Shown: piece by piece, positions 1,234 to 10,301 of the stretch
How positions within the stretch are numbered: the stretch's first letter is position 1
Layout: each line of letters opens with the position of its first letter
Assembly (NCBI GenBank): GCA_030616165.1
Contig: JAUWXV010000122.1
Location: 1 to 10,952, forward strand
Reading direction: 5' to 3'
DNA length: 10,952 nt
Source of the DNA: a bacterium
GTDB lineage: Bacteria; SM23-31; JAUVVT01
Position numbers and translations under genes: made by a program
The notes under the pieces: model-generated
What the model was told of the DNA's origin: nothing
Databases searched by the model: none
Seen by the model: the letters and a program-made list of their open reading frames with translations, nothing else

Positions 1234-3429
1234 ATGGCAGGTATTCAAACTACAGATATTATCGTAATGATAATTTATTTTATGATTATGATAGGGATAG
1301 GAATATATTCCCGCAAAAGGACAAAAGACCAGGAAGGTTTTTTTATGGGTGGAAGAGGGTTTGGAAAGATAATTCAAACCTTTGCAGCCTTTGGTGCAGG
1401 AACATCAGCAGATAGTCCAATAGGAACATCCAGGAATATTATTATTGGCGGTCTTTCAGGAATCTGGACTGTACTCAATTGGCTATTTTGTACTCCGTTT
1501 TACTGGTTTTTTGGTAAGTGGTACAGAAGAATGAGAATTATTACTACTGGAGATTTCTACGATGAGCGGTTTGATTCGCGGGGTCTTGCAGGAACATATG
1601 CTATTTTTGCTCTGGTTTTTTTCATGGGGTATATATCCATAGGATTCTCTGCCGTTTCTAAAACCATTTATGCTATTGCTCCAAAATCTGAAGTGTCTCT
1701 TAATGTTAATGAGAAAATAGAACTGACAGAATTTAGGCAAATAAAAGACCTTGAAGAAAAAGATTATTCTCTTTTAACTCCAGAAGAAAGACAAGAATTA
1801 GAAGACCTTCGTGTAAAAAATCCGAGGGGTTTGTTTCCAGTTATAAATCCGAATTATATAATCATTGCAATGGGTGTTGTAGCAGCAATATATGGTATAT
1901 TAGGAGGTTTAACTGCCGCATATTTTACTGATTTAATTCAAGGTACTATGATAATCTTACTTTCATTAATTCTTATTCCGTTTGCTTTAATGGGTATTAC
2001 CAATAAATATGGTAGTGGAGGTGAAGGTCTTTTTGATGGTTTTAGGATAATGCACGATATGCTTCCGGAAGAATTCTTCGATATACTTGGTTCTGCTCAT
2101 GCAAGTGATTTTACATGGTATTATCTTACTGCAATTGTAACGATGAACCTTATTGGAATAATTGTTCAACCGCATCAATTATCAGTAGGTGGTGCAACCG
2201 CAAAAGATGAATTAACCGGAAGAATTGGTATTGTCAGCGGAAATTTATTAAAGAGATTTTGTACATTATTTTGGGCATTGACCGCTCTTTTTGTACTAAC
2301 ATTATTTTCAAAAGAATTTTCTGACCCAGATTTAGCCTGGGGATATGCTACAAGAATGCTTCTGGGTCCATTAGGAATTGGTCTTGTTGGATTAATGCTT
2401 GCATGTTTGCTTGCCGCAGTTATGTCAAGTGTCGATGCATATATGGTTGCTGCCTCAGCCCTGATTACCAGAAATCTGTATAGACCCTTTTCCCCTGGTA
2501 AAAGTGAAAAATTCTATGTTAATATTGGACGGACTTCAGGAGGCATTATTATAATAGGAGCAATTTATCTTTCAATATATTTCCAGGACGTTTTTATGCA
2601 GTTTAAATTTATCTGGGAAATTCCGATTATTTTTGGTGCATCTTTATGGATTGGACTTTTTTGGCGAAGGGCAACCGCTGCGGCTGTTTGGACGAATGTT
2701 GTATTTTCGACTATTTTTTTCTTTATTTTACCAGTAACTATTCCAGCAATAATACCTAATCTTTCCACAAATCCAAAATATTTATTGATGACAAAACCAG
2801 CTCCAATTGTCAGAGAATATGAAGCCAAAGAATTTGATATAATTGAGAGGGATGATGAAATTCAGAGATGGATAAACATTCCTGAAGAGGAGAGACTGGT
2901 TTTACCGAAGCCTGAAAAAATAAATGTAGGTGATAAGATTCAAAAAACTTTCAAACCAAAAAGTGCCTCCATTTTTTGGACAAAAGGTATAAATGTTCAC
3001 GCAGACGGTTCACTTGAAGGAGAGGGGTTTTTTAATTTAGAGATGATACTATTTCAAAAATTGGGAATGGACCTTGAAAGCTATCCGAATCCATTGATTG
3101 AAACATTAAGACTCCCCCTTAGAATTATTCTTCCAATATTGATAATTATTTTGGTTTCTCTTTTTACTTCACCGGTTAATAGAGAAAAAACTGACAGATT
3201 TTTCACAAAAATGCGAATCACTGTTAACCCTGACCATGAAAAAGACCGTAAAAATGTAAAAGAAGCATTAAAAAATCCTGCAAGATATGAACATCTAAAA
3301 ATGTTTCCTAATACTAACTTTGAATTCCAAAAATTAACAAAAGAAGATATAATCGGATTTATTATTGTTTGGATAATGGTTATTGGGATTATTGGAATGG
3401 CAATTGGAATGGCTTCGATTGGTTCATAA
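1234..3429 (+). CDS. Sodium:solute symporter (SSS family), 731 aa with long soluble loops
   Basis: Inner-membrane Na+-coupled transporter of the SSS/SLC5 type, likely importing a sugar, sugar acid or similar organic solute. TM1 lies at about residues 7-26, followed by the family-like FAAFGAGTSADSPIGT stretch and repeated hydrophobic segments. The segment AAVMSSVDAYMVAASALITR (about 394-413) is the SSS signature with the Ser-rich Na2-site region. Usual members have about 450-600 residues. The excess here lies in hydrophilic insertions at about 150-206, 509-620 and 645-706, before a final TM at about 707-727. The start has only a weak TAGGT ribosome-site candidate at 1221-1225. It is followed 48 nt later by a DUF1080 lipoprotein, so co-transcription and a role in the same carbohydrate pathway are likely. 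The substrate cannot be read from sequence; sugar versus carboxylate specificity is open. Confidence 0.9.
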   Translation: MAGIQTTDIIVMIIYFMIMIGIGIYSRKRTKDQEGFFMGGRGFGKIIQTFAAFGAGTSADSPIGTSRNIIIGGLSGIWTVLNWLFCTPFYWFFGKWYRRMRIITTGDFYDERFDSRGLAGTYAIFALVFFMGYISIGFSAVSKTIYAIAPKSEVSLNVNEKIELTEFRQIKDLEEKDYSLLTPEERQELEDLRVKNPRGLFPVINPNYIIIAMGVVAAIYGILGGLTAAYFTDLIQGTMIILLSLILIPFALMGITNKYGSGGEGLFDGFRIMHDMLPEEFFDILGSAHASDFTWYYLTAIVTMNLIGIIVQPHQLSVGGATAKDELTGRIGIVSGNLLKRFCTLFWALTALFVLTLFSKEFSDPDLAWGYATRMLLGPLGIGLVGLMLACLLAAVMSSVDAYMVAASALITRNLYRPFSPGKSEKFYVNIGRTSGGIIIIGAIYLSIYFQDVFMQFKFIWEIPIIFGASLWIGLFWRRATAAAVWTNVVFSTIFFFILPVTIPAIIPNLSTNPKYLLMTKPAPIVREYEAKEFDIIERDDEIQRWINIPEEERLVLPKPEKINVGDKIQKTFKPKSASIFWTKGINVHADGSLEGEGFFNLEMILFQKLGMDLESYPNPLIETLRLPLRIILPILIIILVSLFTSPVNREKTDRFFTKMRITVNPDHEKDRKNVKEALKNPARYEHLKMFPNTNFEFQKLTKEDIIGFIIVWIMVIGIIGMAIGMASIGS

Positions 3430-3477
3430 GATATTTTAAAACATTTAATTTATATTTAAAAATTTTTAGGGGATAAA

Positions 3478-4713
3478 ATGAAAAATATTTTATTTAAAAG
3501 ATTAAAAAGATTTGGATATCTATTAGCAATAATTTGTTTTTCGTTAATTTTAACGAATATTTCCTGCCAGAAAAAATCATCTATCTTAATTAAATCATCG
3601 GCTTGGATTCCGCTTTTTAATGGAAAAGACTTAACTGGTTGGGAAATTGTAGGAGCAGGAGACTGGAAAGTTGAAGATGGGATTTTAGTGGGAAGTTCTG
3701 ATCCCGCAAATCCCTCAGGAAGTTGGCTGATAAATAGAAATGATTACAATAATTTTCATCTCAGAGTAAAATTCCAGATCAATGAGAGTGGTAAGGGAGG
3801 TTTGTGTTTTAGAGTACCTTCACAAGGTAAAGATAACCCATCCGAAAACGGTTATAAAATAAATATAGATTTCAGCGGTATGCTGAATCCAACCGGTACC
3901 ATAATAAACGTTGCAAGGGCATATAAAGTTCGTGAAAAAATCTCCAGTAAAGATCCCTGGCAGAAACTGGAATTGTGGGTGGAAAATGATAGAATTGTTG
4001 TCCTGTTGAACAATGATAAAGTTGCTGAAGGATTTGACAGAAAATCTTTGATTGGAGCGATAGGGATTCAGATTTCAGGTGAAGAAACCGCCTTAAAAAT
4101 TAAGGAAATATCTGTACTACCTCGTCCTGATTGCACAGTTTTAGAGCCAACAATTGAAGAACAACTTGAGAATGCACCAGGAACATGGAAACCTCTTTTT
4201 AATGGAAAAGACATCACTGGTTGGGAACAGCCGTCTGGTAATGCAAAATGGGTAGTTCAAGATGGAGCGTTAACAGTTATGCCGGGAGGAACAGGTTGGA
4301 TGTTTTATTTAGAAGAAAGTTTTTCTAACTTTATATTTCGTCTTAAGTTCAAAGTTGGAGAAACTTGCAATAGCGGAGTAGCTTATAGATATCAATTTTC
4401 TCATGGGAATCGTTTGCCCTCATGGTTTCGGTCTGAGGTGCAAGTTTTTGGTAATGATAATCTGCAAATAGCAGATGGAACAGGTTCAATCTATGCATTA
4501 TCACGGCATAACGTTGGACTTATGAAAGAAGGTGAATGGAATGAACTTAAAATATATGCTTTAGGTGAACATATTGTTACATATGTTAACGGCAAAAAAG
4601 CTTCAGAGGCTATTAACACGGCGACATTAAATGGTTCTATAGGAGTATCTGCTCATGACCCCAAGACGTCCGCTCAATTCAAAGATATCGAAATTAAAGA
4701 AGTGGATTGGTAG
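3478..4713 (+). CDS. Exported lipoprotein with two DUF1080 (3-keto-disaccharide hydrolase) domains
   Basis: A 411-residue protein with a basic N-terminus, a hydrophobic segment (about 13-28) and Cys30 preceded by TNIS. This is a lipobox-like site, imperfect at -3, so lipidation is probable but not certain. Two homologous modules follow: one opens at about residue 43 with PLFNGKDLTGWE, the second at about residue 237 with PLFNGKDITGWE, and each continues with an aromatic beta-rich jelly-roll pattern ending in SIGV/AIGIQ-type strands. DUF1080 (PF06439) members include hydrolases/lyases acting on 3-keto-glycosides; others may simply bind sugars. The start is supported by AGGGGA at 3468-3473. The gene sits between the symporter and an aldo/keto reductase with 47-48 nt gaps, which suggests one operon. 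The tandem arrangement looks like an old internal duplication, since the modules have clearly diverged. Confidence 0.85.
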   Translation: MKNILFKRLKRFGYLLAIICFSLILTNISCQKKSSILIKSSAWIPLFNGKDLTGWEIVGAGDWKVEDGILVGSSDPANPSGSWLINRNDYNNFHLRVKFQINESGKGGLCFRVPSQGKDNPSENGYKINIDFSGMLNPTGTIINVARAYKVREKISSKDPWQKLELWVENDRIVVLLNNDKVAEGFDRKSLIGAIGIQISGEETALKIKEISVLPRPDCTVLEPTIEEQLENAPGTWKPLFNGKDITGWEQPSGNAKWVVQDGALTVMPGGTGWMFYLEESFSNFIFRLKFKVGETCNSGVAYRYQFSHGNRLPSWFRSEVQVFGNDNLQIADGTGSIYALSRHNVGLMKEGEWNELKIYALGEHIVTYVNGKKASEAINTATLNGSIGVSAHDPKTSAQFKDIEIKEVDW

Positions 4714-4760
4714 AAATTTTCTCCGAAGAAGAATGCAGTTAAATTGGGAGGTAATGATAA

Positions 4761-5777
4761 ATGAAATACAGGTATATGGGAAAATCAGGATTAAAGGTAT
4801 CCCGTGTATGTTTAGGTACTATGACCTTTGGACAGGAAAACTGGGGATGTGATAAGCAAACCTCCATTAAAATAGTAGATAAATTCCTTGACTATGGGGG
4901 GAATTTTATTGATACTGCTGATATGTATGGGAAAGGTTTATCTGAAAAATATGTTGGTGAGGCTATAAAGGGTAAAAGAGATAAGGTAGTTCTCGCAACT
5001 AAATGTTATTTTCCAATGGGAGATACTCCAACTTCAAAAGGACTTTCAAGAAAACATATCATTGAAGCATGTGAGGCAAGTCTCCGACGACTTAATACTG
5101 ACTATATCGATTTATATCAGACTCATGGTCCTGATTATCGAACACCCTTAGATGAAACAATGCGCACACTTGACGATTTAGTGAGACAGGGAAAGGTGCG
5201 ATATATTGGGTGCAGTAACCTTCACGCATGGCAGATAGTAAAAGCGAATTGTATAAGTGCCCGGTTTGGACTTGAAAAATACATCTCTGCTCAGCATTTA
5301 TACAATCTGATACTCAGAGACGTGGAGAGAGAAATTCTTCCTGCGGTTTCTGATCAAGGAATGGGACTCATTTGCTGGAGTCCATTAGCAAGTGGTATGC
5401 TTACCGGGAAATACGAGCGAGCAGACATACCCACGTCTGGAACAAGGATGGCACATCGGGCTGAATTTGACATTCCGAGATACTGGCACGCTCGGGGATT
5501 TAAAATAGTCGATGCAGTAAAAGAAGAAGCAAAGAAATTGGATTGGACACCAGCGCAAATTGCATTGGCATGGCTTCTTTACAATAAGACTATCTCCGCT
5601 GTGATTATTGGGACGCGTGCCATCGAACAAATCACCGATACAATAGCAGTAGGCGATTTGGATTTGCCTGAGGAAGCCTGGGAAAGGCTTAATAATGTTG
5701 TTCCTTTTGAGCATGGTTACCCAATGTCGTGGTTTGAACTGGTTAAAAAACAAATTTACAACGATATAGAATTCTGA
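4761..5777 (+). CDS. Aldo/keto reductase, 338 aa
   Basis: Cytoplasmic NADPH-dependent oxidoreductase with a TIM-barrel fold. The family tetrad is visible: Asp51 and Tyr56 in FIDTADMYG, Lys81 in LATKCYF, and His122 in YQTHGPD. The opening MKYRYMGKSGLKVSRVCLGT is the classical first strand of the YajO/YhdN/Kv-beta-like AKR group, and GKVRYIGCSN (about 155-164) and ICWSPLASGMLTGKY are the later conserved strands. Length is normal for the group. The start at 4761 is fixed by a strong GGGAGGT ribosome site at 4746-4752. It probably reduces a keto-sugar or aldehyde produced from the substrate handled by the flanking DUF1080 proteins. That link is inference from the 47-nt gap upstream and the DUF1080 gene downstream; AKRs are promiscuous and specificity cannot be assigned. 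Confidence 0.9.
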   Translation: MKYRYMGKSGLKVSRVCLGTMTFGQENWGCDKQTSIKIVDKFLDYGGNFIDTADMYGKGLSEKYVGEAIKGKRDKVVLATKCYFPMGDTPTSKGLSRKHIIEACEASLRRLNTDYIDLYQTHGPDYRTPLDETMRTLDDLVRQGKVRYIGCSNLHAWQIVKANCISARFGLEKYISAQHLYNLILRDVEREILPAVSDQGMGLICWSPLASGMLTGKYERADIPTSGTRMAHRAEFDIPRYWHARGFKIVDAVKEEAKKLDWTPAQIALAWLLYNKTISAVIIGTRAIEQITDTIAVGDLDLPEEAWERLNNVVPFEHGYPMSWFELVKKQIYNDIEF

Positions 5778-5790
5778 AAAAAAATAAACA

Positions 5791-5818
5791 ATAGAGACAC
5801 ACTGCAGTGTGTCTCTAT
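5791..5818. repeat. Perfect 28-bp palindrome between aldo/keto reductase and DUF1080 genes
   Basis: ATAGAGACACACTG (5791-5804) is followed directly by its exact reverse complement CAGTGTGTCTCTAT (5805-5818). On the + strand no T-tract follows. On the - strand the stem would be followed by a U-rich run (complement of the A-rich 5777-5790). It could be an RNA hairpin processing or attenuation site in the operon, a terminator for antisense transcripts, or a REP-like repeat. The stem at 8627-8660 is similar in composition (GGACAGAACA...). Confidence 0.75.
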
Positions 5819-5858
5819 ATCATGAAAATAATCTTATTAAAAATAATCAGGAGGATTA

Positions 5859-6575
5859 ATGAAATCTTACAAATTAATAAAAACAGCAGTAATTCTTTTA
5901 TCTGTATTTAGTTTTATATTGTGCGCACAAGAAGAAAAAGAAGAGGGTTTTGTTTCACTTTTTGATGGAAAGACATTGAACAGTTGGAAAATACCAGAGG
6001 GTGATAATGGACATTGGAGGATAGTTGATGGCGTAATTGACTACGACGGTAAAAGTGAAGCCCAAGGAGATAAAACTCTCTGGACAGAGAAAGAATATGA
6101 GGATTTTACATTGAAAATAGACTGGCGATTAATAAAAGAACCAGTAGAAGAAGACGTACCATGGGTTCTACCAGATGGAAATTACGAACTGAATGCAGAC
6201 GGAACTCAAAAAACAGTAAGGGTAATGGATGCAGGTGACAGTGGAGTTCTTTTGCGCGGAACTGGTAGATGTCAGTTAAATATTTGGTCCTGGCCAATTG
6301 GATCTGGTGAGGTATATTCATACAGGAATGATAAAAATACTCCTCCAGAAATCAAAAAAGGAGTAACACCAATTATGCATGCTGACAATCTTCCAGGTGA
6401 ATGGAACACATTTATTGCTACAATGAAAGGTGATAGACTGACAGTAGTTCTTAATGGTAAAACTGTTATTGAGAATGCGCAACTACCCGGAGCCCCACCA
6501 ACAGGTCCAATCGGATTACAACATCATACTGACCCGGTCCAGTTTCGAAATATCTTTATTAAAGAAATTAAATAA
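5859..6575 (+). CDS. Exported single-domain DUF1080 protein, 238 aa
   Basis: The N-terminus MKSYKLIKTAVILLSVFSFI is a Sec-type signal peptide. Cys22 (FILCAQ) could be a poor lipobox, but periplasmic release is equally possible. The mature part is one DUF1080 / 3-keto-disaccharide hydrolase module: SLFDGKTLNSWK (about 33-44), GHWRIVDGVIDY, the DSGVLLRG strand, WSWPIGSGEV, GEWNTFIATMKGD, and the terminal GPIGLQHHTDPVQFRNIFIKEI. It has near-normal length for a one-domain member. The start is set by AGGAGG at 5849-5854 with a short 4-nt spacer. It lies 81 nt after the aldo/keto reductase with a perfect palindrome between them. It is more similar to planctomycete/FCB-type DUF1080 enzymes than to either module of the upstream tandem protein, so the two were probably acquired or diverged separately. 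The catalytic role is inferred from the family only. Confidence 0.87.
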   Translation: MKSYKLIKTAVILLSVFSFILCAQEEKEEGFVSLFDGKTLNSWKIPEGDNGHWRIVDGVIDYDGKSEAQGDKTLWTEKEYEDFTLKIDWRLIKEPVEEDVPWVLPDGNYELNADGTQKTVRVMDAGDSGVLLRGTGRCQLNIWSWPIGSGEVYSYRNDKNTPPEIKKGVTPIMHADNLPGEWNTFIATMKGDRLTVVLNGKTVIENAQLPGAPPTGPIGLQHHTDPVQFRNIFIKEIK

Positions 6576-6787: not shown

Positions 6788-6816
6788 TTGACTTAATAAA
6801 AATTATTTTTTATATT
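6788..6816 (+). promoter_or_regulatory. Strong sigma70-type promoter
   Basis: TTGACT (6788-6793), exactly 17 nt, then TATATT (6811-6816) in an AT-rich setting. This predicts a transcription start near 6823, just upstream of the AAGGAG ribosome site at 6831-6836 that serves the 52-residue protein. It is the best promoter match in the window and separates this unit from the DUF1080 operon. The preceding 6576-6787 stretch shows no gene and no clear hairpin terminator, only a T-run right after the stop. Confidence 0.7.
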
Positions 6817-6843
6817 ATAGAAAATAATTAAAGGAGAAGAAAT

Positions 6844-7002
6844 ATGCCAAAAGCAAAAGCAAGAGCAAAAGCTAAGTCCAAAAATGCAACACAGAAAGCA
6901 GCAAAGTCAGCTAGATGTGCAGCTATATCAAAGACTACTAAGAAGCGATGTAAACGGCTTGCAGTGGGAAGAAGTAAGTACTGCACAGCGCACAAAAAAT
7001 AA
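6844..7002 (+). CDS. Small basic Cys/His protein (DUF5763-like), 52 aa
   Basis: It is supported by a near-consensus promoter, an AAGGAG ribosome site at 6831-6836 with 7-nt spacing, and strong coding bias. Residues 2-24 are an Ala/Lys/Arg-rich tail resembling histone-H1-like DNA-binding tails. Residues 25-50 carry Cys25, Cys36, Cys47 and His50 (C-x10-C-x10-C-x2-H) in the pattern RCAAISKTTKKRCKRLAVGR then SKYCTAH. That pattern recalls the short motif of DUF5763-type and similar proteins (C-x-A-x-T-x-x-G-x-x-C-x-R...YC-x-x-H), which is probably metal binding. A nucleic-acid-binding role is inferred from charge and the zinc-knuckle-like spacing; no function is established. It lies 30 nt upstream of the LeuB-like gene and is probably co-transcribed with it. 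Confidence 0.8.
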   Translation: MPKAKARAKAKSKNATQKAAKSARCAAISKTTKKRCKRLAVGRSKYCTAHKK

Positions 7003-7032
7003 GACAGGATTAAAGTCAAATTTGAGGGTTCG

Positions 7033-8094
7033 ATGCTAAAGATTGCGGTGATTCCAGGAGACGGAACTGGACCAGAAGTTATCAACGAAGGTCTTAAGGT
7101 GCTTAATGCGACTTCTCAGAAGACTGGATTCAAATACGAAACGCAGGTTTATGATTTTGGAGGCGAAAGATTTAAAAGGACGGGTGAAATTCTGCCGGAT
7201 TCTGTTTTGCATGAACTGAAACAGTTTGATGCAATTTATCTCGGTGCTATTGGTCATCCAGATGTGAAGCCGGGTATTCTTGAAAAGGGAATTTTATTGA
7301 AATTAAGGTTTGAACTTGACCAGTATATTAATCTTCGTCCTGTAAAACTTTATCCAGGTGTTGAAACACCGCTCAAAGACAAGGGTCCTGAAGATATCGA
7401 TTTTGTTGTGGTTCGTGAAAACACTGAGGGCCTTTATACAGGGAGTGGTGGGTTTTTGAAAAAAGGAACACCAGATGAAGTTGCGCTCCAAACTTCAATT
7501 AATACTCGCAAAGGTGTCGAAAGATGTATTCGATATGCATACGAATATACTCGTAAAAGAAACAAAAGTAAGACTCTCACACTCTGCGGTAAAACAAACG
7601 TTCTGACTTATGCATTTGATTTGTGGGAAAGGGTGTTTTATGAAGTTGGAGATAAATATTATCCGGACATAAAGAAAGATTACGCTCATGTTGATGCTAC
7701 CTGTATGTGGATGGTTAAAAACCCGGAATGGTTTGATGTAATCGTCACGGATAATATGTTCGGCGACATTATTACGGATCTGGGAGCAATGATACAGGGT
7801 GGAATGGGGATAGCTTCTGGCGGTAATATTAATCCTGATGGAGTATCAATGTTTGAGCCAATTGGTGGTTCTGCTCCGAAATACACAGGAAAAAATTTAA
7901 TTAATCCAATGGCTTCTATATCCGCCGCCCAGATGATGCTTTCTATTCTTGGTGAAGAAAAAGCATCGCAGATAATGGAAAACGCAATTGTGAAAGTTCT
8001 TTCAACAAAACTTAAGAGTCTTCAAGCTGGAAAAATGGGATATTCTACAACTGAAGTTGGCGATTTAGTATGTGAAGAAATTGTTAAAGTATAA
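7033..8094 (+). CDS. leuB: 3-isopropylmalate dehydrogenase-like beta-decarboxylating dehydrogenase, 353 aa
   Basis: NAD-dependent oxidative decarboxylase of the isocitrate/isopropylmalate/tartrate dehydrogenase family, normally the third step of leucine synthesis. Visible residues: GDGTGPEV (9-16); Arg92, Arg102 and Arg128 binding the malate moiety; Tyr135 in TEGLYTG; Lys187 in GKTNV; Asp221, Asp245 and Asp249 for the divalent metal; and the cofactor loop GSAPKYTGKNLINP (279-292). Leu88-Leu89 before LRFEL match the hydrophobic isopropyl pocket. The stretch EKGILLKLRFELDQYINLRP is typical of the actinobacterial-type LeuB subgroup. Length is standard. A GAGGG ribosome site at 7024-7028 supports the start. 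No leuA, leuC or leuD is adjacent, so a D-malate or tartrate dehydrogenase role remains possible. It is likely in a bicistron with the small Cys/His gene and is followed by a hairpin terminator. Confidence 0.85.
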   Translation: MLKIAVIPGDGTGPEVINEGLKVLNATSQKTGFKYETQVYDFGGERFKRTGEILPDSVLHELKQFDAIYLGAIGHPDVKPGILEKGILLKLRFELDQYINLRPVKLYPGVETPLKDKGPEDIDFVVVRENTEGLYTGSGGFLKKGTPDEVALQTSINTRKGVERCIRYAYEYTRKRNKSKTLTLCGKTNVLTYAFDLWERVFYEVGDKYYPDIKKDYAHVDATCMWMVKNPEWFDVIVTDNMFGDIITDLGAMIQGGMGIASGGNINPDGVSMFEPIGGSAPKYTGKNLINPMASISAAQMMLSILGEEKASQIMENAIVKVLSTKLKSLQAGKMGYSTTEVGDLVCEEIVKV

Positions 8095-8186
8095 TCCAGT
8101 ATAATTACCCTTAAATGATTTTATAACTATATCTTTGAACAGCAGCGAAGACGTTTTATTTTTAAATGGTGGAATATCCACCTTGG

Positions 8187-8258
8187 GTGCCTCCTATTTT
8201 GTTATGTTTTGTTTTAATAAGTTTTATATAATATAACAAAATTAGAGGCACTTTTTTT
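8187..8258 (+). terminator. Long-stem intrinsic terminator after the LeuB-like gene
   Basis: A 19-nt arm at 8187-8205 (GTGCCTCCTATTTTGTTAT) pairs with 8233-8251 (ATAACAAAATTAGAGGCAC) with only a two-base interruption. The 27-nt loop is AT-rich and T7 follows at 8252-8258. A small hairpin GGTGGA/TCCACC (8168-8182) precedes it. The stem is longer than a typical terminator, so it could be a mobile palindrome doubling as terminator. Confidence 0.65.
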
Positions 8259-8268
8259 ATAACTTTCA

Positions 8269-8311
8269 TTAATAAGCCTATGGCTTATTAACCCCTAACT
8301 TTAGTTAGGGG
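8269..8311. repeat. Two tandem perfect hairpins
   Basis: TTAATAAGCC/GGCTTATTAA (8269-8278/8282-8291, 3-nt loop) abuts CCCCTAACT/AGTTAGGGG (8292-8300/8303-8311, 2-nt spacer), followed by an A-run. On the - strand the second hairpin is followed by no T-run, so this looks like a REP-type repeat unit rather than a terminator. Confidence 0.7.
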
Positions 8312-8360
8312 AAAAAAGAAGCTTCCCTTTAAAAGTCAAACCGTGACATGACACTAGTAG

Positions 8361-8380
8361 GACAGACATTCCTGTCTGTC
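8361..8380. repeat. Palindrome GACAGACA-TTCC-TGTCTGTC
   Basis: Perfect 8-bp arms with a 4-nt loop. It is one of several different short palindromes in the gene-free block and is not followed by a T-tract. Confidence 0.65.
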
Positions 8381-8409
8381 GAATTGGCTCTCTGCGTGCC
8401 CATTGGGTT

Positions 8410-8422
8410 GGGTTTACCCGCC
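8410..8422. repeat. Partial copy of the GGGTTTACCCGCC repeat
   Basis: GGGTTTACCCGCC is identical to 8987-8999 and to the reverse complement of the 8710-8730 core. This gives three occurrences within 600 bp. Confidence 0.6.
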
Positions 8423-8431
8423 TCTGGCAGG

Positions 8432-8465
8432 CTTGTCCTGTGGATTGGTATTGTCACCAACAGAG
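8432..8465 (+). repeat. Two direct-repeat seeds with second copies downstream
   Basis: CTTGTCCTGTGGATT (8432-8446) recurs with one mismatch at 8679-8693. TTGTCACCAACAGAG (8451-8465) recurs exactly at 8963-8977. The two partners are separated by different distances (247 and 512 nt), so this is patchwork copying rather than a simple tandem duplication. Confidence 0.65.
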
Positions 8466-8481
8466 AAAATGTTACACCGCC

Positions 8482-8527
8482 TTGTCATTTCTCCACTTCG
8501 CCTTTCGTGCTTTTCTTGGAATGACAA
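8482..8527. repeat. TTGTCATTyC ... GGAATGACAA inverted repeat
   Basis: TTGTCATTTC (8482-8491) faces GGAATGACAA (8518-8527), a 9/10 match, around a 26-nt pyrimidine-rich loop. The ends match the repeat at 984-1082, which suggests the same dispersed family. Confidence 0.5.
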
Positions 8528-8590
8528 AAAAGATAGTTCTGCAACAGACAAGAAAGCGGGAATCCATACCTTGTTTATCTCGAAAATAGA

Positions 8591-8620
8591 ACCACGAATT
8601 ACACAGATTAAAGAGATTAG
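8591..8620. repeat. CCACGAATTACACAGATTA-type dispersed repeat
   Basis: ACCACGAATTACACAGATTA followed by AAGAGATTAG matches the widespread intergenic phrase (ACCACGAATTACAC...) seen in many environmental genomes. A diverged copy in the opposite orientation is at 9663-9690. Recognition is from memory of the phrase, not from a search. Confidence 0.45.
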
Positions 8621-8626
8621 ATATAG

Positions 8627-8660
8627 GGACAGAACAGTGCCTGCACACTGTGTTCTGTCC
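8627..8660. repeat. Palindromic stem GGACAGAACA ... TGTTCTGTCC
   Basis: The 10-bp arms at 8627-8636 and 8651-8660 are perfect; the interior GTGC/GCAC (8637-8640/8643-8646) can extend the stem with a bulge. It resembles the 5791-5818 palindrome in layout (purine-GACA...TGTC). Confidence 0.6.
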
Positions 8661-8709
8661 TTACAATTAAGCTATGTGCTTGTCCTTTGGATTCGCCCTT
8701 ATAATGAGT

Positions 8710-8730
8710 GCGGGTAAACCCGCCCCTACG
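8710..8730 (+). repeat. 21-bp repeat, left copy of an inverted pair
   Basis: The sequence GCGGGTAAACCCGC then CCCTACG is the exact reverse complement of 8978-8998, and it holds its own palindrome GCGGGTaaACCCGC. It could be one end of a 289-bp palindromic element or an independent REP insertion. Confidence 0.7.
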
Positions 8731-8769
8731 AAATAACTATGTTATAAATATAAAAAATTTACCATGATC

Positions 8770-8792
8770 GCCTCGGGTATCTTACCCGAGGC
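8770..8792. repeat. Perfect hairpin GCCTCGGGTA / TACCCGAGGC
   Basis: 10-bp arms with a 3-nt loop, located between the two 21-bp inverted copies. A smaller hairpin (AGGCT/AGCCC region, about 8803-8819) follows. No T-tract is present. Confidence 0.7.
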
Positions 8793-8977
8793 ACATAATA
8801 AGTAGGCTTCATAGCCCACCAAATAAAGGCAATCTAAAAATTCAGCAACACAATACTTATTTCTTGACAATATGGTTAGAAAATTATTCATTTTACATGT
8901 TGGGCAAAGCTCTTCTTCACCTTGCACTTTTTTTGAGATTTATCTGCGGATCTCTATTAGTGTTGTCACCAACAGAG

Positions 8978-8998
8978 CGTAGGGGCGGGTTTACCCGC
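8978..8998 (-). repeat. 21-bp repeat, right copy of the inverted pair
   Basis: CGTAGGGGCGGGTTTACCCG plus C is the exact reverse complement of 8710-8730. It directly follows the second copy of TTGTCACCAACAGAG (8963-8977). The GTAGGGGCGGG phrase is common in REP-like repeats of several phyla. Confidence 0.7.
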
Positions 8999-9022
8999 CC
9001 TTTCTTTATTTTCATGTATCGT

Positions 9023-9246
9023 GCGCTCCGAATGAGCATGAGTGTTTATTCAGAAAATAGAATATATTTTTAAATTAAATGAATATGAATATTTTAATTA
9101 TCGGGTTCGATTTATCGAACCCCTACAAATTTTATTATTATAATTGTAGGGGCTTGATTTATCAAGCCCTTTATATTAATTTTTGTTAAATCTGCACTTA
9201 CACAATTAATCCAGAAAATATAATATATTTTCATGCTTTGGAGCGC
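9023..9246. repeat. Inverted-repeat-bounded segment with subterminal direct repeats
   Basis: GCGCTCC-n5-AGCATG (9023-9040) faces CATGCT-n2-GGAGCGC (9232-9246). Just inside lie CAGAAAATAGAATATATTTT (9051-9070) and the same 20-mer with one change at 9212-9231. The middle carries the twin hairpins at 9103-9169. The layout resembles a small non-autonomous element with no coding capacity, but no target duplication was identified. Confidence 0.45.
9103..9169. repeat. Twin hairpins with compensatory changes, linked by a CCCCTACAA/TTGTAGGGG stem
   Basis: Hairpin A is GGGTTCGA-TTTA-TCGAACCC (9103-9122). Hairpin B is GGGCTTGA-TTTA-TCAAGCCC (9150-9169). They differ at two stem positions, and both changes are compensated on the opposite arm (T-A to C-G and C-G to T-A). 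CCCCTACAA (9120-9128) and TTGTAGGGG (9144-9152) between them are also complementary, overlapping the hairpin bases, so alternative folds are possible. Confidence 0.75.
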
Positions 9247-9253
9247 CACTAAT

Positions 9254-9508
9254 TAGTCGTCCCTGAAAAACAATATAATATATTGTTAATAAACAGCTTG
9301 CATTTATCATTATTATTGTTTAAACTGCAAGAAAACGCAATAATATTTAAAAAAACTGGTGATTTATGCAGGCAAAAAAACCTACTTTAAGCCCGGAAGA
9401 TTTATTTAGGTCATGTTTAGATCAAATATTAGATAACAAACAACTGTTAATACTCAATCAAGATTCCGCTTTCTTGAAGTTTAAAACCGTGTTTTTCAGG
9501 GACGACTA
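9254..9508. mobile_element. 255-bp MITE-like element with 19-bp perfect terminal inverted repeats
   Basis: TAGTCGTCCCTGAAAAACA (9254-9272) is the exact reverse complement of TGTTTTTCAGGGACGACTA (9490-9508). If the terminal TA is a 2-bp target duplication, the repeats are 17 bp. The interior has an AT-rich palindrome next to the left end (9270-9286) and, on the + strand, a short reading frame from 9366 that resembles the head of a DDE transposase and runs into the right repeat. This looks like an internal-deletion derivative of a complete insertion sequence. The IS family is not certain. Confidence 0.72.
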
Positions 9509-9545
9509 TTTAACTCCTAAAGGCACATCTCCTAATAACCAATAG
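9366..9545 (+). pseudogene. Transposase N-terminal fragment inside the MITE (59 codons)
   Basis: The frame opens MQAKKPTLSPEDLFRSCLDQ and continues ILDNKQLLILNQDSAFLKFK before reading through the right terminal repeat (9490-9508) to a TAG at 9543-9545. A 'PEDLFRS.LDQIL...LL.L' opening resembles the first helix of IS5/IS4-type DDE transposases, in which this head is followed by several hundred residues that are missing here. About 40 residues are transposase-like; the rest is the element's end and flanking DNA. A functional protein is unlikely, though a short repressor-like peptide cannot be excluded. Confidence 0.45.
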
Positions 9546-9662
9546 CCAACAAATAATAGCAAAAACTTAAAATAGTTCTTGCAATTACGAAAAATATTTA
9601 TTATATTTATAACATAGTATTATTAACAATAACTTTTTTTATTTCGATACTGGGAAACATCT

Positions 9663-9690
9663 AATTCGTAAAATTAGCGTAATTAGCGGT
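9663..9690. repeat. Diverged inverse copy of the CCACGAATTACAC-type repeat
   Basis: AATTCGTAAAATTAGCGTAA followed by TTAGCGGT reads, on the - strand, ACCGCTAATTACGCTAATTT, similar to the start of 8591-8620. Similarity is partial and rests on eye alignment. Confidence 0.3.
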
Positions 9691-9791
9691 TTTTATAAAG
9701 ATTTATGCATTTTTCAGAAAGAAATATCCGATTTTTTTTGAATAAATTATGGCTTTAATCCTTGAATTTAAATAAATTAACCCCTGGCACT

Positions 9792-9832
9792 AAATTCCCA
9801 AAAACTCACGTATTTGGGAAAAATGGGAATTT
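9792..9832. repeat. Competing stems AAATTCCCA / TTTGGGAA / TGGGAATTT
   Basis: AAATTCCCA (9792-9800) can pair with TGGGAATTT (9824-9832). The overlapping TTCCCAAA (9795-9802) can pair with TTTGGGAA (9813-9820). The direct repeat GGCACT flanks the pair (about 9786-9791 and 9834-9839). It sits just downstream of the - strand DUF1232 stop and may end its transcript, though no clean U-tract follows. Confidence 0.5.
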
Positions 9833-9866
9833 TGGCACTTTTTTCCCACAAAACAAAATAAGGTTT

Positions 9867-10301
9867 TTATTTAAGACCTATCTTTTTACGCAAAACATCA
9901 AGTTTTTTTCCTATAATATTATGGGAAATGGCAAGAATATTCTGTATTAAAGCAAGAATATTACCGCGGCCGCTCCAATTTTCAACAACTGCTTCTTCAC
10001 TAACTTCATTAATAATCTTATTTAAAACCATAACTGCAATAATTATATCATCGGTATATCCAAAAGGACCAACCAGTGCTTCCGGGATAATGTCAATAGG
10101 GGAGATAAAATATGCAATAGCCGCAGCTAAAAAACCTTTATGCTTAGCGGGAACACGCTTATCTTTCATAAGTCGAAACAAAAGCATAAATATATCAGGA
10201 GCCAATAGTATTAAATCGGAATGTTTACCGCTGTATTTAGAAATCTTTTTTCGCAGTTTGTCATAAAAACGTTTTGCCCTTAATTCAGTAATATCTTTCA
10301 T
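9867..10301 (-). CDS. DUF1232 (YkvA-type) small membrane-associated protein, 144 aa
   Basis: The family core is plain: VPAKHKGFLAAAIAYFISPI then DIIPEALVGPFGYTDD (about residues 50-85), with the invariant SPIDxIP and GYxDD motifs that define DUF1232 (PF06803). One hydrophobic helix (about 57-68) continues into a second (about 85-97), so membrane association is likely. The N-terminal 30 residues are basic. The function of the family is unknown; YkvA-like proteins are widespread one-gene additions. The start ATG (10299-10301) has no convincing ribosome site, but it places the conserved core at a normal distance. The next gene upstream on this strand ends 165 nt away. The 3' end faces the repeat block. 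Confidence 0.85.
   Translation of the reverse strand: MKDITELRAKRFYDKLRKKISKYSGKHSDLILLAPDIFMLLFRLMKDKRVPAKHKGFLAAAIAYFISPIDIIPEALVGPFGYTDDIIIAVMVLNKIINEVSEEAVVENWSGRGNILALIQNILAISHNIIGKKLDVLRKKIGLK

What the first reader, a model, noticed from the sequence alone, without database searches (positions are those of the whole stretch)
6844..7002. 52-residue Lys/Ala-tail plus Cys/His protein with its own strong promoter, directly upstream of a LeuB-like gene
The gene is short and easily missed by annotation, yet it has the best promoter and ribosome site in the window. Its C-x10-C-x10-C-x2-H pattern behind a histone-H1-like tail suggests a tiny metal-dependent nucleic-acid-binding protein. Pairing with a metabolic dehydrogenase is unexpected and could mean autoregulation or simple hitch-hiking.
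Basis: partly seen in the sequence, partly recalled or inferred. Interest (0 to 1): 0.65.

Follow-up and report, generated by a model that had tools for sequence, protein, structure and literature searches.

The report
H1-tailed bacterial mini zinc-finger protein
A real 52-residue bacterial gene encodes a positively charged tail joined to a tiny probable zinc finger; relatives with the same build occur in at least six bacterial phyla, including more than half of the genomes of one phylum, and probably bind DNA or RNA, while the metabolic gene next to it is there by chance.

Summary
The small gene at 6844-7002 is real. Its protein, a Lys/Ala tail followed by C-x10-C-x10-C-x2-H, has no match in Pfam or NCBIfam. 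Profile searches nevertheless found relatives with the same two-part build. I examined 72 copies from 70 genomes in at least six phyla; in one phylum 74 of 132 genomes carry the motif, nearly always as a small gene. A profile built without the query finds it at E = 1e-8, and none of 40,000 shuffles scores as high. All 72 copies have C-x9-C-x10-C-x2-H, so the window protein, with x10, is an outlier. The finger is under purifying selection, and 61 of 72 copies have their own terminator. The LeuB pairing is not conserved: none of 85 LeuB-type loci carries the motif, and no relative sits beside LeuB. The spacing equals that of plant WRC/HRT zinc fingers, with weak profile similarity to DUF5763, WRC, Mcm10 zf-primase and HGGxSTG. 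Best reading: a zinc-stabilised, largely sequence-nonspecific nucleic-acid binder with an H1-like tail. Zinc and nucleic-acid binding are inferred, not shown.

The parts
6788..6816 (+). promoter-like site TTGACT-17 nt-TATATT in very AT-rich DNA
   Evidence: 10 of 12 matches; consensus match only
6830..6836 (+). Shine-Dalgarno AAAGGAG, 7 nt before the start codon
   Evidence: duplex -9.0 kcal/mol, reached by 2.6% of random 22-mers of the window
6844..7002 (+). 52-aa H1-tail plus C3H-finger protein
   Evidence: family membership
6844..6912 (+). Lys/Ala/Arg-rich tail, residues 1-23, predicted disordered
   Evidence: sequence; AlphaFold with 10-row alignment gives pLDDT about 50 here
6916..6993 (+). 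C3H mini-finger C25-x10-C36-x10-C47-x2-H50
   Evidence: pLDDT about 80-86
7024..7028 (+). GAGGG, weak ribosome site of the LeuB-like gene
   Evidence: -6.1 kcal/mol
7033..8094 (+). 3-isopropylmalate dehydrogenase-like gene, probably cotranscribed; incidental neighbour
   Evidence: Pfam Iso_dh 4e-91; NCBIfam NF002898 539.6 bits, cut-off 393; pairing not conserved
8187..8258 (+). imperfect hairpin followed by T-run, possible terminator of the two-gene unit
   Evidence: inverted repeat I5 and following CTTTTTTTAT

Best explanation
6844-7002 encodes a member of a widespread, so far unmodelled family of tiny basic bacterial proteins: a variable, disordered Lys/Ala(/Val/Arg) tail like that of histone H1, plus one mini-finger whose three Cys and one His hold one zinc ion. 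Shown: coding gene, conserved two-part build, invariant C3H residues, purifying selection on the finger, an own terminator in most relatives. Inferred: zinc binding, and largely sequence-nonspecific binding of DNA (possibly RNA), with the tail giving electrostatic affinity and the finger a fixed anchor, so that the protein acts as a small nucleoid- or RNA-associated packing protein. In this genome it shares a transcript with a LeuB-like gene by chance of position.
For: Leave-query-out profile of 67 distinct relative cores: query E 1.1e-8 for a 40,000-sequence space; 0 of 20,000 shuffles and 0 of 20,000 shuffles with Cys/His fixed reach its score. 72 of 72 copies keep C-x9-C-x10-C-x2-H with a basic tail of 2-100 residues. 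Distribution: 74 of 132 genomes of one phylum, 6 of 8 of another, 3 of 9 of a third, plus two further lineages. Purifying selection on the finger: omega 0.06-0.21 where measurable in one family, median 0.29 over 173 pairs. Hairpin plus T-run within 80 nt of the stop in 61 of 72 copies, against 3-4 in shuffles and 47 of 290 neighbouring genes. Same spacing as the plant WRC/HRT finger, a DNA-binding zinc finger (PMC7380329), and weak matches to WRC 2e-4, zf-primase 3e-4, DUF5763 3e-4 and HGG_STG 5e-6. ET/HRT repeats bind zinc and DNA (PMC6585611); the Mcm10 CCCH finger binds ss- and dsDNA without sequence preference (PMC5333062); the H1-like KPAA tail of AlgP binds DNA (PMC9239181).
Against: No experiment shows zinc or nucleic-acid binding. 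All named-family matches whose cut-off was shown are below it, and the query itself matches no Pfam or NCBIfam model. No solved structure matches by sequence or by fold. The window member deviates: x10 instead of x9, Ser for the invariant Thr, and loss of the usual Gly. It has no relative in its own class, so it may be a recent acquisition or lie on a mis-binned 11-kb contig. The same motif also appears in secreted-looking and phage proteins, where DNA binding is not obvious.
Confidence: 0.62

Rival explanations
1. RNA- or ribosome-associated protein: the finger and tail bind rRNA, tRNA or mRNA rather than DNA.
For: Some relatives match the tRNA-methylase TRM13 CCCH finger weakly; very small size, strong ribosome site and high basic charge (+19 in 52 residues) also fit ribosome-associated proteins.
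Against: Tails of up to 100 residues that vary strongly in length resemble H1-like DNA-binding tails more than ribosomal proteins; no ribosomal gene recognised among the conserved neighbours.
Confidence: 0.2
2. Local regulator or leader ORF of the downstream LeuB-like gene (autoregulation, attenuation or translational coupling).
For: Only 30 nt separate the genes, no terminator or promoter was found between them, and LeuB has a weaker ribosome site.
Against: One Leu codon in 52, so no leucine attenuator; no leader RNA family; pairing absent in 85 LeuB-type loci and in all relatives; relatives are stand-alone units with their own terminators.
Confidence: 0.05
3. Metal handling: a zinc store or buffer, with the basic tail incidental.
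For: Four invariant metal-ligand-type residues.
Against: One site per 32-130 residues is poor storage; the tail is kept in nearly all lineages; no zinc transporter or zinc regulator neighbours seen.
Confidence: 0.06
4. Tethering factor: the tail binds DNA or polyphosphate and the finger binds a partner protein, as proposed for granule positioning by AlgP/PhaF.
For: H1-like tails are used that way in AlgP and PhaF (PMC9239181).
Against: No granule or partner gene recognised near the copies; AlgP has a helical N-terminal domain instead of a finger.
Confidence: 0.07

Closest known systems
WRC/HRT-type C3H zinc finger (Pfam WRC PF08879; plant GRF and ET/HRT proteins)
   Same: C-x9-C-x10-C-x2-H in all 72 relatives; basic surroundings; weak profile matches (2e-4 at best)
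   Different: no Trp-Arg-Cys signature, bacterial, stand-alone, query has x10; matches weak (the one with a shown cut-off, lies under it)
DUF5763 (Pfam PF19067)
   Same: same Cys/His layout and similar residues between them; weak match for 11 of 18 relatives tested
   Different: below cut-off 26.3 bits where shown; query not matched at E<=10; in the genomes inspected DUF5763 hits mostly sit in larger proteins without an H1-like tail
HGGxSTG domain (NCBIfam NF041373), N-terminus of phage terminase-small-subunit-like proteins
   Same: same C3H spacing, e.g. Microbacterium phage gene 1 just before the terminase gene
   Different: HGG motif after the finger absent here; 13-17 bits against a cut-off of 29 where shown
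Mcm10/primase zinc finger (Pfam PF09329 zf-primase)
   Same: CCCH zinc finger binding DNA without sequence preference; weak match for 6 of 18 relatives
   Different: Mcm10 finger is packed on an OB-fold; here it stands alone
Bacterial H1-like proteins (Hc1/Hc2, AlgP, PhaF)
   Same: low-complexity Lys/Ala tail of very variable length
   Different: AlgP has a helical domain and no finger is known in this group (own knowledge); only one relative matched HC2, at 0.14

Membership tests
DUF5763 (PF19067) | profile score at or above the gathering cut-off of 26.3 bits | tested here: not met
   query no match at E<=10; best relative E 3e-4
DUF5763 (PF19067) | Cys/His layout as seen in its hits (C-x9-C-x8to10-C-x2-H) | tested here: inconclusive
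   met by all 72 relatives; query has x10 in the first gap
WRC/HRT zinc finger | C-x9-C-x10-C-x2-H | tested here: inconclusive
   met by 72 of 72 relatives, not by the query (x10)
WRC/HRT zinc finger | Pfam WRC score over cut-off and Trp-Arg-Cys signature | tested here: not met
   query: no match, Ala-Arg-Cys; relatives weak only
HGGxSTG domain | HGG after the last Cys, score over 29 bits | tested here: not met
   sequence HKK; relatives 13-17 bits where shown
this H1-tail plus C3H family | basic Lys-rich tail plus one C3H core recognised by a profile made without the query | tested here: met
   E 1.1e-8; 0 of 40,000 shuffles
histone H1-like nucleoid protein | binds DNA in vivo and in vitro | not testable with these tools
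   composition only; HC2 profile matched by one relative at 0.14
zinc finger | binds one zinc ion through C3H | not testable with these tools
   ligand residues invariant; AlphaFold models carry no metal

The most novel reading that the evidence does not exclude
A previously unnamed class of bacterial linker-histone-like chromatin proteins, anchored by a WRC/HRT/Mcm10-type single zinc finger and kept as stand-alone, own-terminator genes in most members of one phylum, in effect a bacterial counterpart of a finger studied mainly in plants.
Probability: 0.3. Interest if true: 0.75.

Novelty: new variant of a known kind. Interest (0 to 1): 0.52.

Why it matters
Small genes like this are often missed, and I found no Pfam or NCBIfam model that recognises this family over its cut-off, although in one phylum 74 of 132 genomes carry it. 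If the relatives are nucleoid proteins, uncultured lineages have a histone-like protein that seems not to have been studied, in a form of 32-130 residues that can be made synthetically and tested for zinc and DNA binding at once. It also places the C-x9-C-x10-C-x2-H finger, described in plant transcription factors, in an ordinary bacterial setting.

Tried and rejected
Single-sequence searches of genome contigs and viral contigs, phage and plasmid tblastn, Pfam, NCBIfam and PDB with the query alone found nothing; the low-complexity tail and divergent finger hide the family, and a profile was needed. The pattern search was mis-specified by one base and says nothing. The LeuB pairing was tested with named genomes and class-mates and rejected. 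Leucine attenuation rejected (one Leu codon; no RNA family). AlphaFold with the query alone gave an implausible 29-residue helix running into the finger; with ten related fingers the core reached about 80-86 pLDDT and the tail was disordered, but Foldseek found no solved fold. A functional partner from synteny: neighbours are conserved only within lineages (pyrD region, a Lon-like gene, ComEA-like gene; names from reading the sequences, not profile-tested) with no common theme. Viral origin: no viral copy with the H1-like tail found.

Full report
OBSERVATION. The window is a whole 10,952-base contig or its first 10,952 bases (C28 of 343) of a 3.7-Mb draft genome whose phylum has only six genomes in the collection. 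At 6844-7002 lies MPKAKARAKAKSKNATQKAAKSARCAAISKTTKKRCKRLAVGRSKYCTAHKK, 52 residues, net charge +19, with C25-x10-C36-x10-C47-x2-H50. A TTGACT-17-TATATT site and an AAAGGAG ribosome site precede it. Both are good, but neither is the best in the window. A LeuB-like gene (Iso_dh; NCBIfam 3-isopropylmalate dehydrogenase, over the cut-off) starts 30 nt after the stop.

FIRST SEARCHES FAIL. Pfam, NCBIfam, PDB, phage, plasmid, viral and genome collections gave no usable hit with this sequence alone; only PHROG 10899, a phage terminase small subunit, matched weakly (0.012). This explains why such genes go unannotated.

FINDING THE FAMILY. Aligned with the query, the three Cys and the His are invariant. 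A first profile of those 12 motifs without the query already scored the query above all but 1 of about 20,000 shuffles. A profile including the query over 386 genomes hit 18. Several hits were small proteins with the query's own build, for example MAKKKSAAKPKAKAKAKAKVTVKAKAKVKATRCAANTKAGKRCKRSASGRSKFCIAHKK, which shares 67% of the finger.

EXTENT. A profile of the closest forms found the motif in 6 of 8 genomes of one phylum, including all six of one family; 3 of 9 of another, one of them a bare 32-residue finger; single genomes of two more lineages; and 74 of 132 genomes of a fifth phylum, a few only in long frames. The genome lists of these searches do not overlap, so with the window's own there are at least six phyla. 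In the 72 copies (70 genomes) that I read, all keep exactly C-x9-C-x10-C-x2-H, and the Lys-rich tail runs from 2 to 100 residues. The window protein, with x10 and Ser for the invariant Thr, is a divergent member.

STATISTICS. A profile from 67 distinct cores without the query scores the query at E 1.1e-8 (space of 40,000); none of 20,000 shuffles, nor of 20,000 shuffles with Cys and His fixed, scores as high. The relatives were gathered with profiles that had contained the query, so this is not wholly independent; one search is. The finger is under purifying selection: omega 0.06-0.21 where synonymous sites are not saturated in one family, median 0.29 over 173 pairs. A strong Shine-Dalgarno precedes 69 of 72 (starts were partly chosen for it). 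A hairpin plus T-run follows within 80 nt in 61 of 72, against 3-4 in shuffled DNA and 47 of 290 neighbouring genes. These are genes with their own transcripts.

THE LEUB PAIRING. None of 80 LeuB-like loci of other genomes, nor the five class-mate loci searched, contains the motif. No relative lies beside LeuB; their neighbours differ by lineage and share no theme, though in two genomes a ComEA-like gene follows by 4 and 17 nt. The ORF holds one Leu codon, so leucine attenuation is out. Cotranscription here is likely, a functional link is not.

MECHANISM. The spacing C-x9-C-x10-C-x2-H is that of the WRC/HRT zinc finger, a DNA-binding module of plant GRF and ET/HRT proteins (PMC7380329; PMC6585611). 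Relatives match WRC, zf-primase (Mcm10), DUF5763, HGGxSTG and a GvpO N-terminal model weakly, under the curated cut-off wherever one was shown. Mcm10's CCCH finger binds ss- and dsDNA without sequence preference (PMC5333062). Lys/Ala tails of H1 type bind DNA in AlgP (PMC9239181). From these I infer, and have not shown, that one zinc ion folds the finger and that finger plus tail bind nucleic acid largely without sequence preference. AlphaFold with ten related fingers gives an ordered core and disordered tail; no solved fold matched.

VERDICT. New variant of a known kind.

CAVEATS. The contig may be mis-binned, as its LeuB is 75-80% identical to proteins of other phyla but only 53% to its best class-mate, and class-mates lack the small gene. 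'Unmodelled' refers to the Pfam and NCBIfam copies used here, and the paper library is not complete.

Noticed in passing
L148 and L166 (reverse strand of the stored loci), finger gene and the gene after it: In two related genomes the small finger gene lies 4 and 17 nt upstream of a ComEA-like gene (membrane anchor plus helix-hairpin-helix by eye), hinting at a DNA-uptake neighbour in that lineage.
   Followed up: partly
window 8095-9870: About 1.7 kb after LeuB with no convincing gene but several long inverted repeats (e.g. 8707-8730 with 8978-9001; 9250-9272 with 9490-9512) and a GGACAGACATTCCTGTCTGTC palindrome near 8360-8380.
   Followed up: partly
window 1234-6575: A sugar-type cluster: sodium/solute-symporter-like protein, two DUF1080 (3-keto-disaccharide hydrolase) genes, the first with two such domains, and an aldo/keto reductase.
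   Followed up: no
window 7033-8094: The LeuB-like protein is 75-80% identical to proteins from many phyla but only 53% or less to class-mates, suggesting horizontal transfer or mis-binning.
   Followed up: partly
L113:1-639, L122:1-624: Microbacterium phage gene 1, directly before terminase and annotated hypothetical, starts with the same C3H motif followed by HGG, as expected for a small terminase subunit.
   Followed up: partly
NCBIfam NF045806 against relatives: The N-terminal model of halophile GvpO matches these fingers (18 of 18, best 6e-7) under its cut-off where shown, so gas-vesicle GvpO of halophiles seems to carry the same mini-finger.
   Followed up: no
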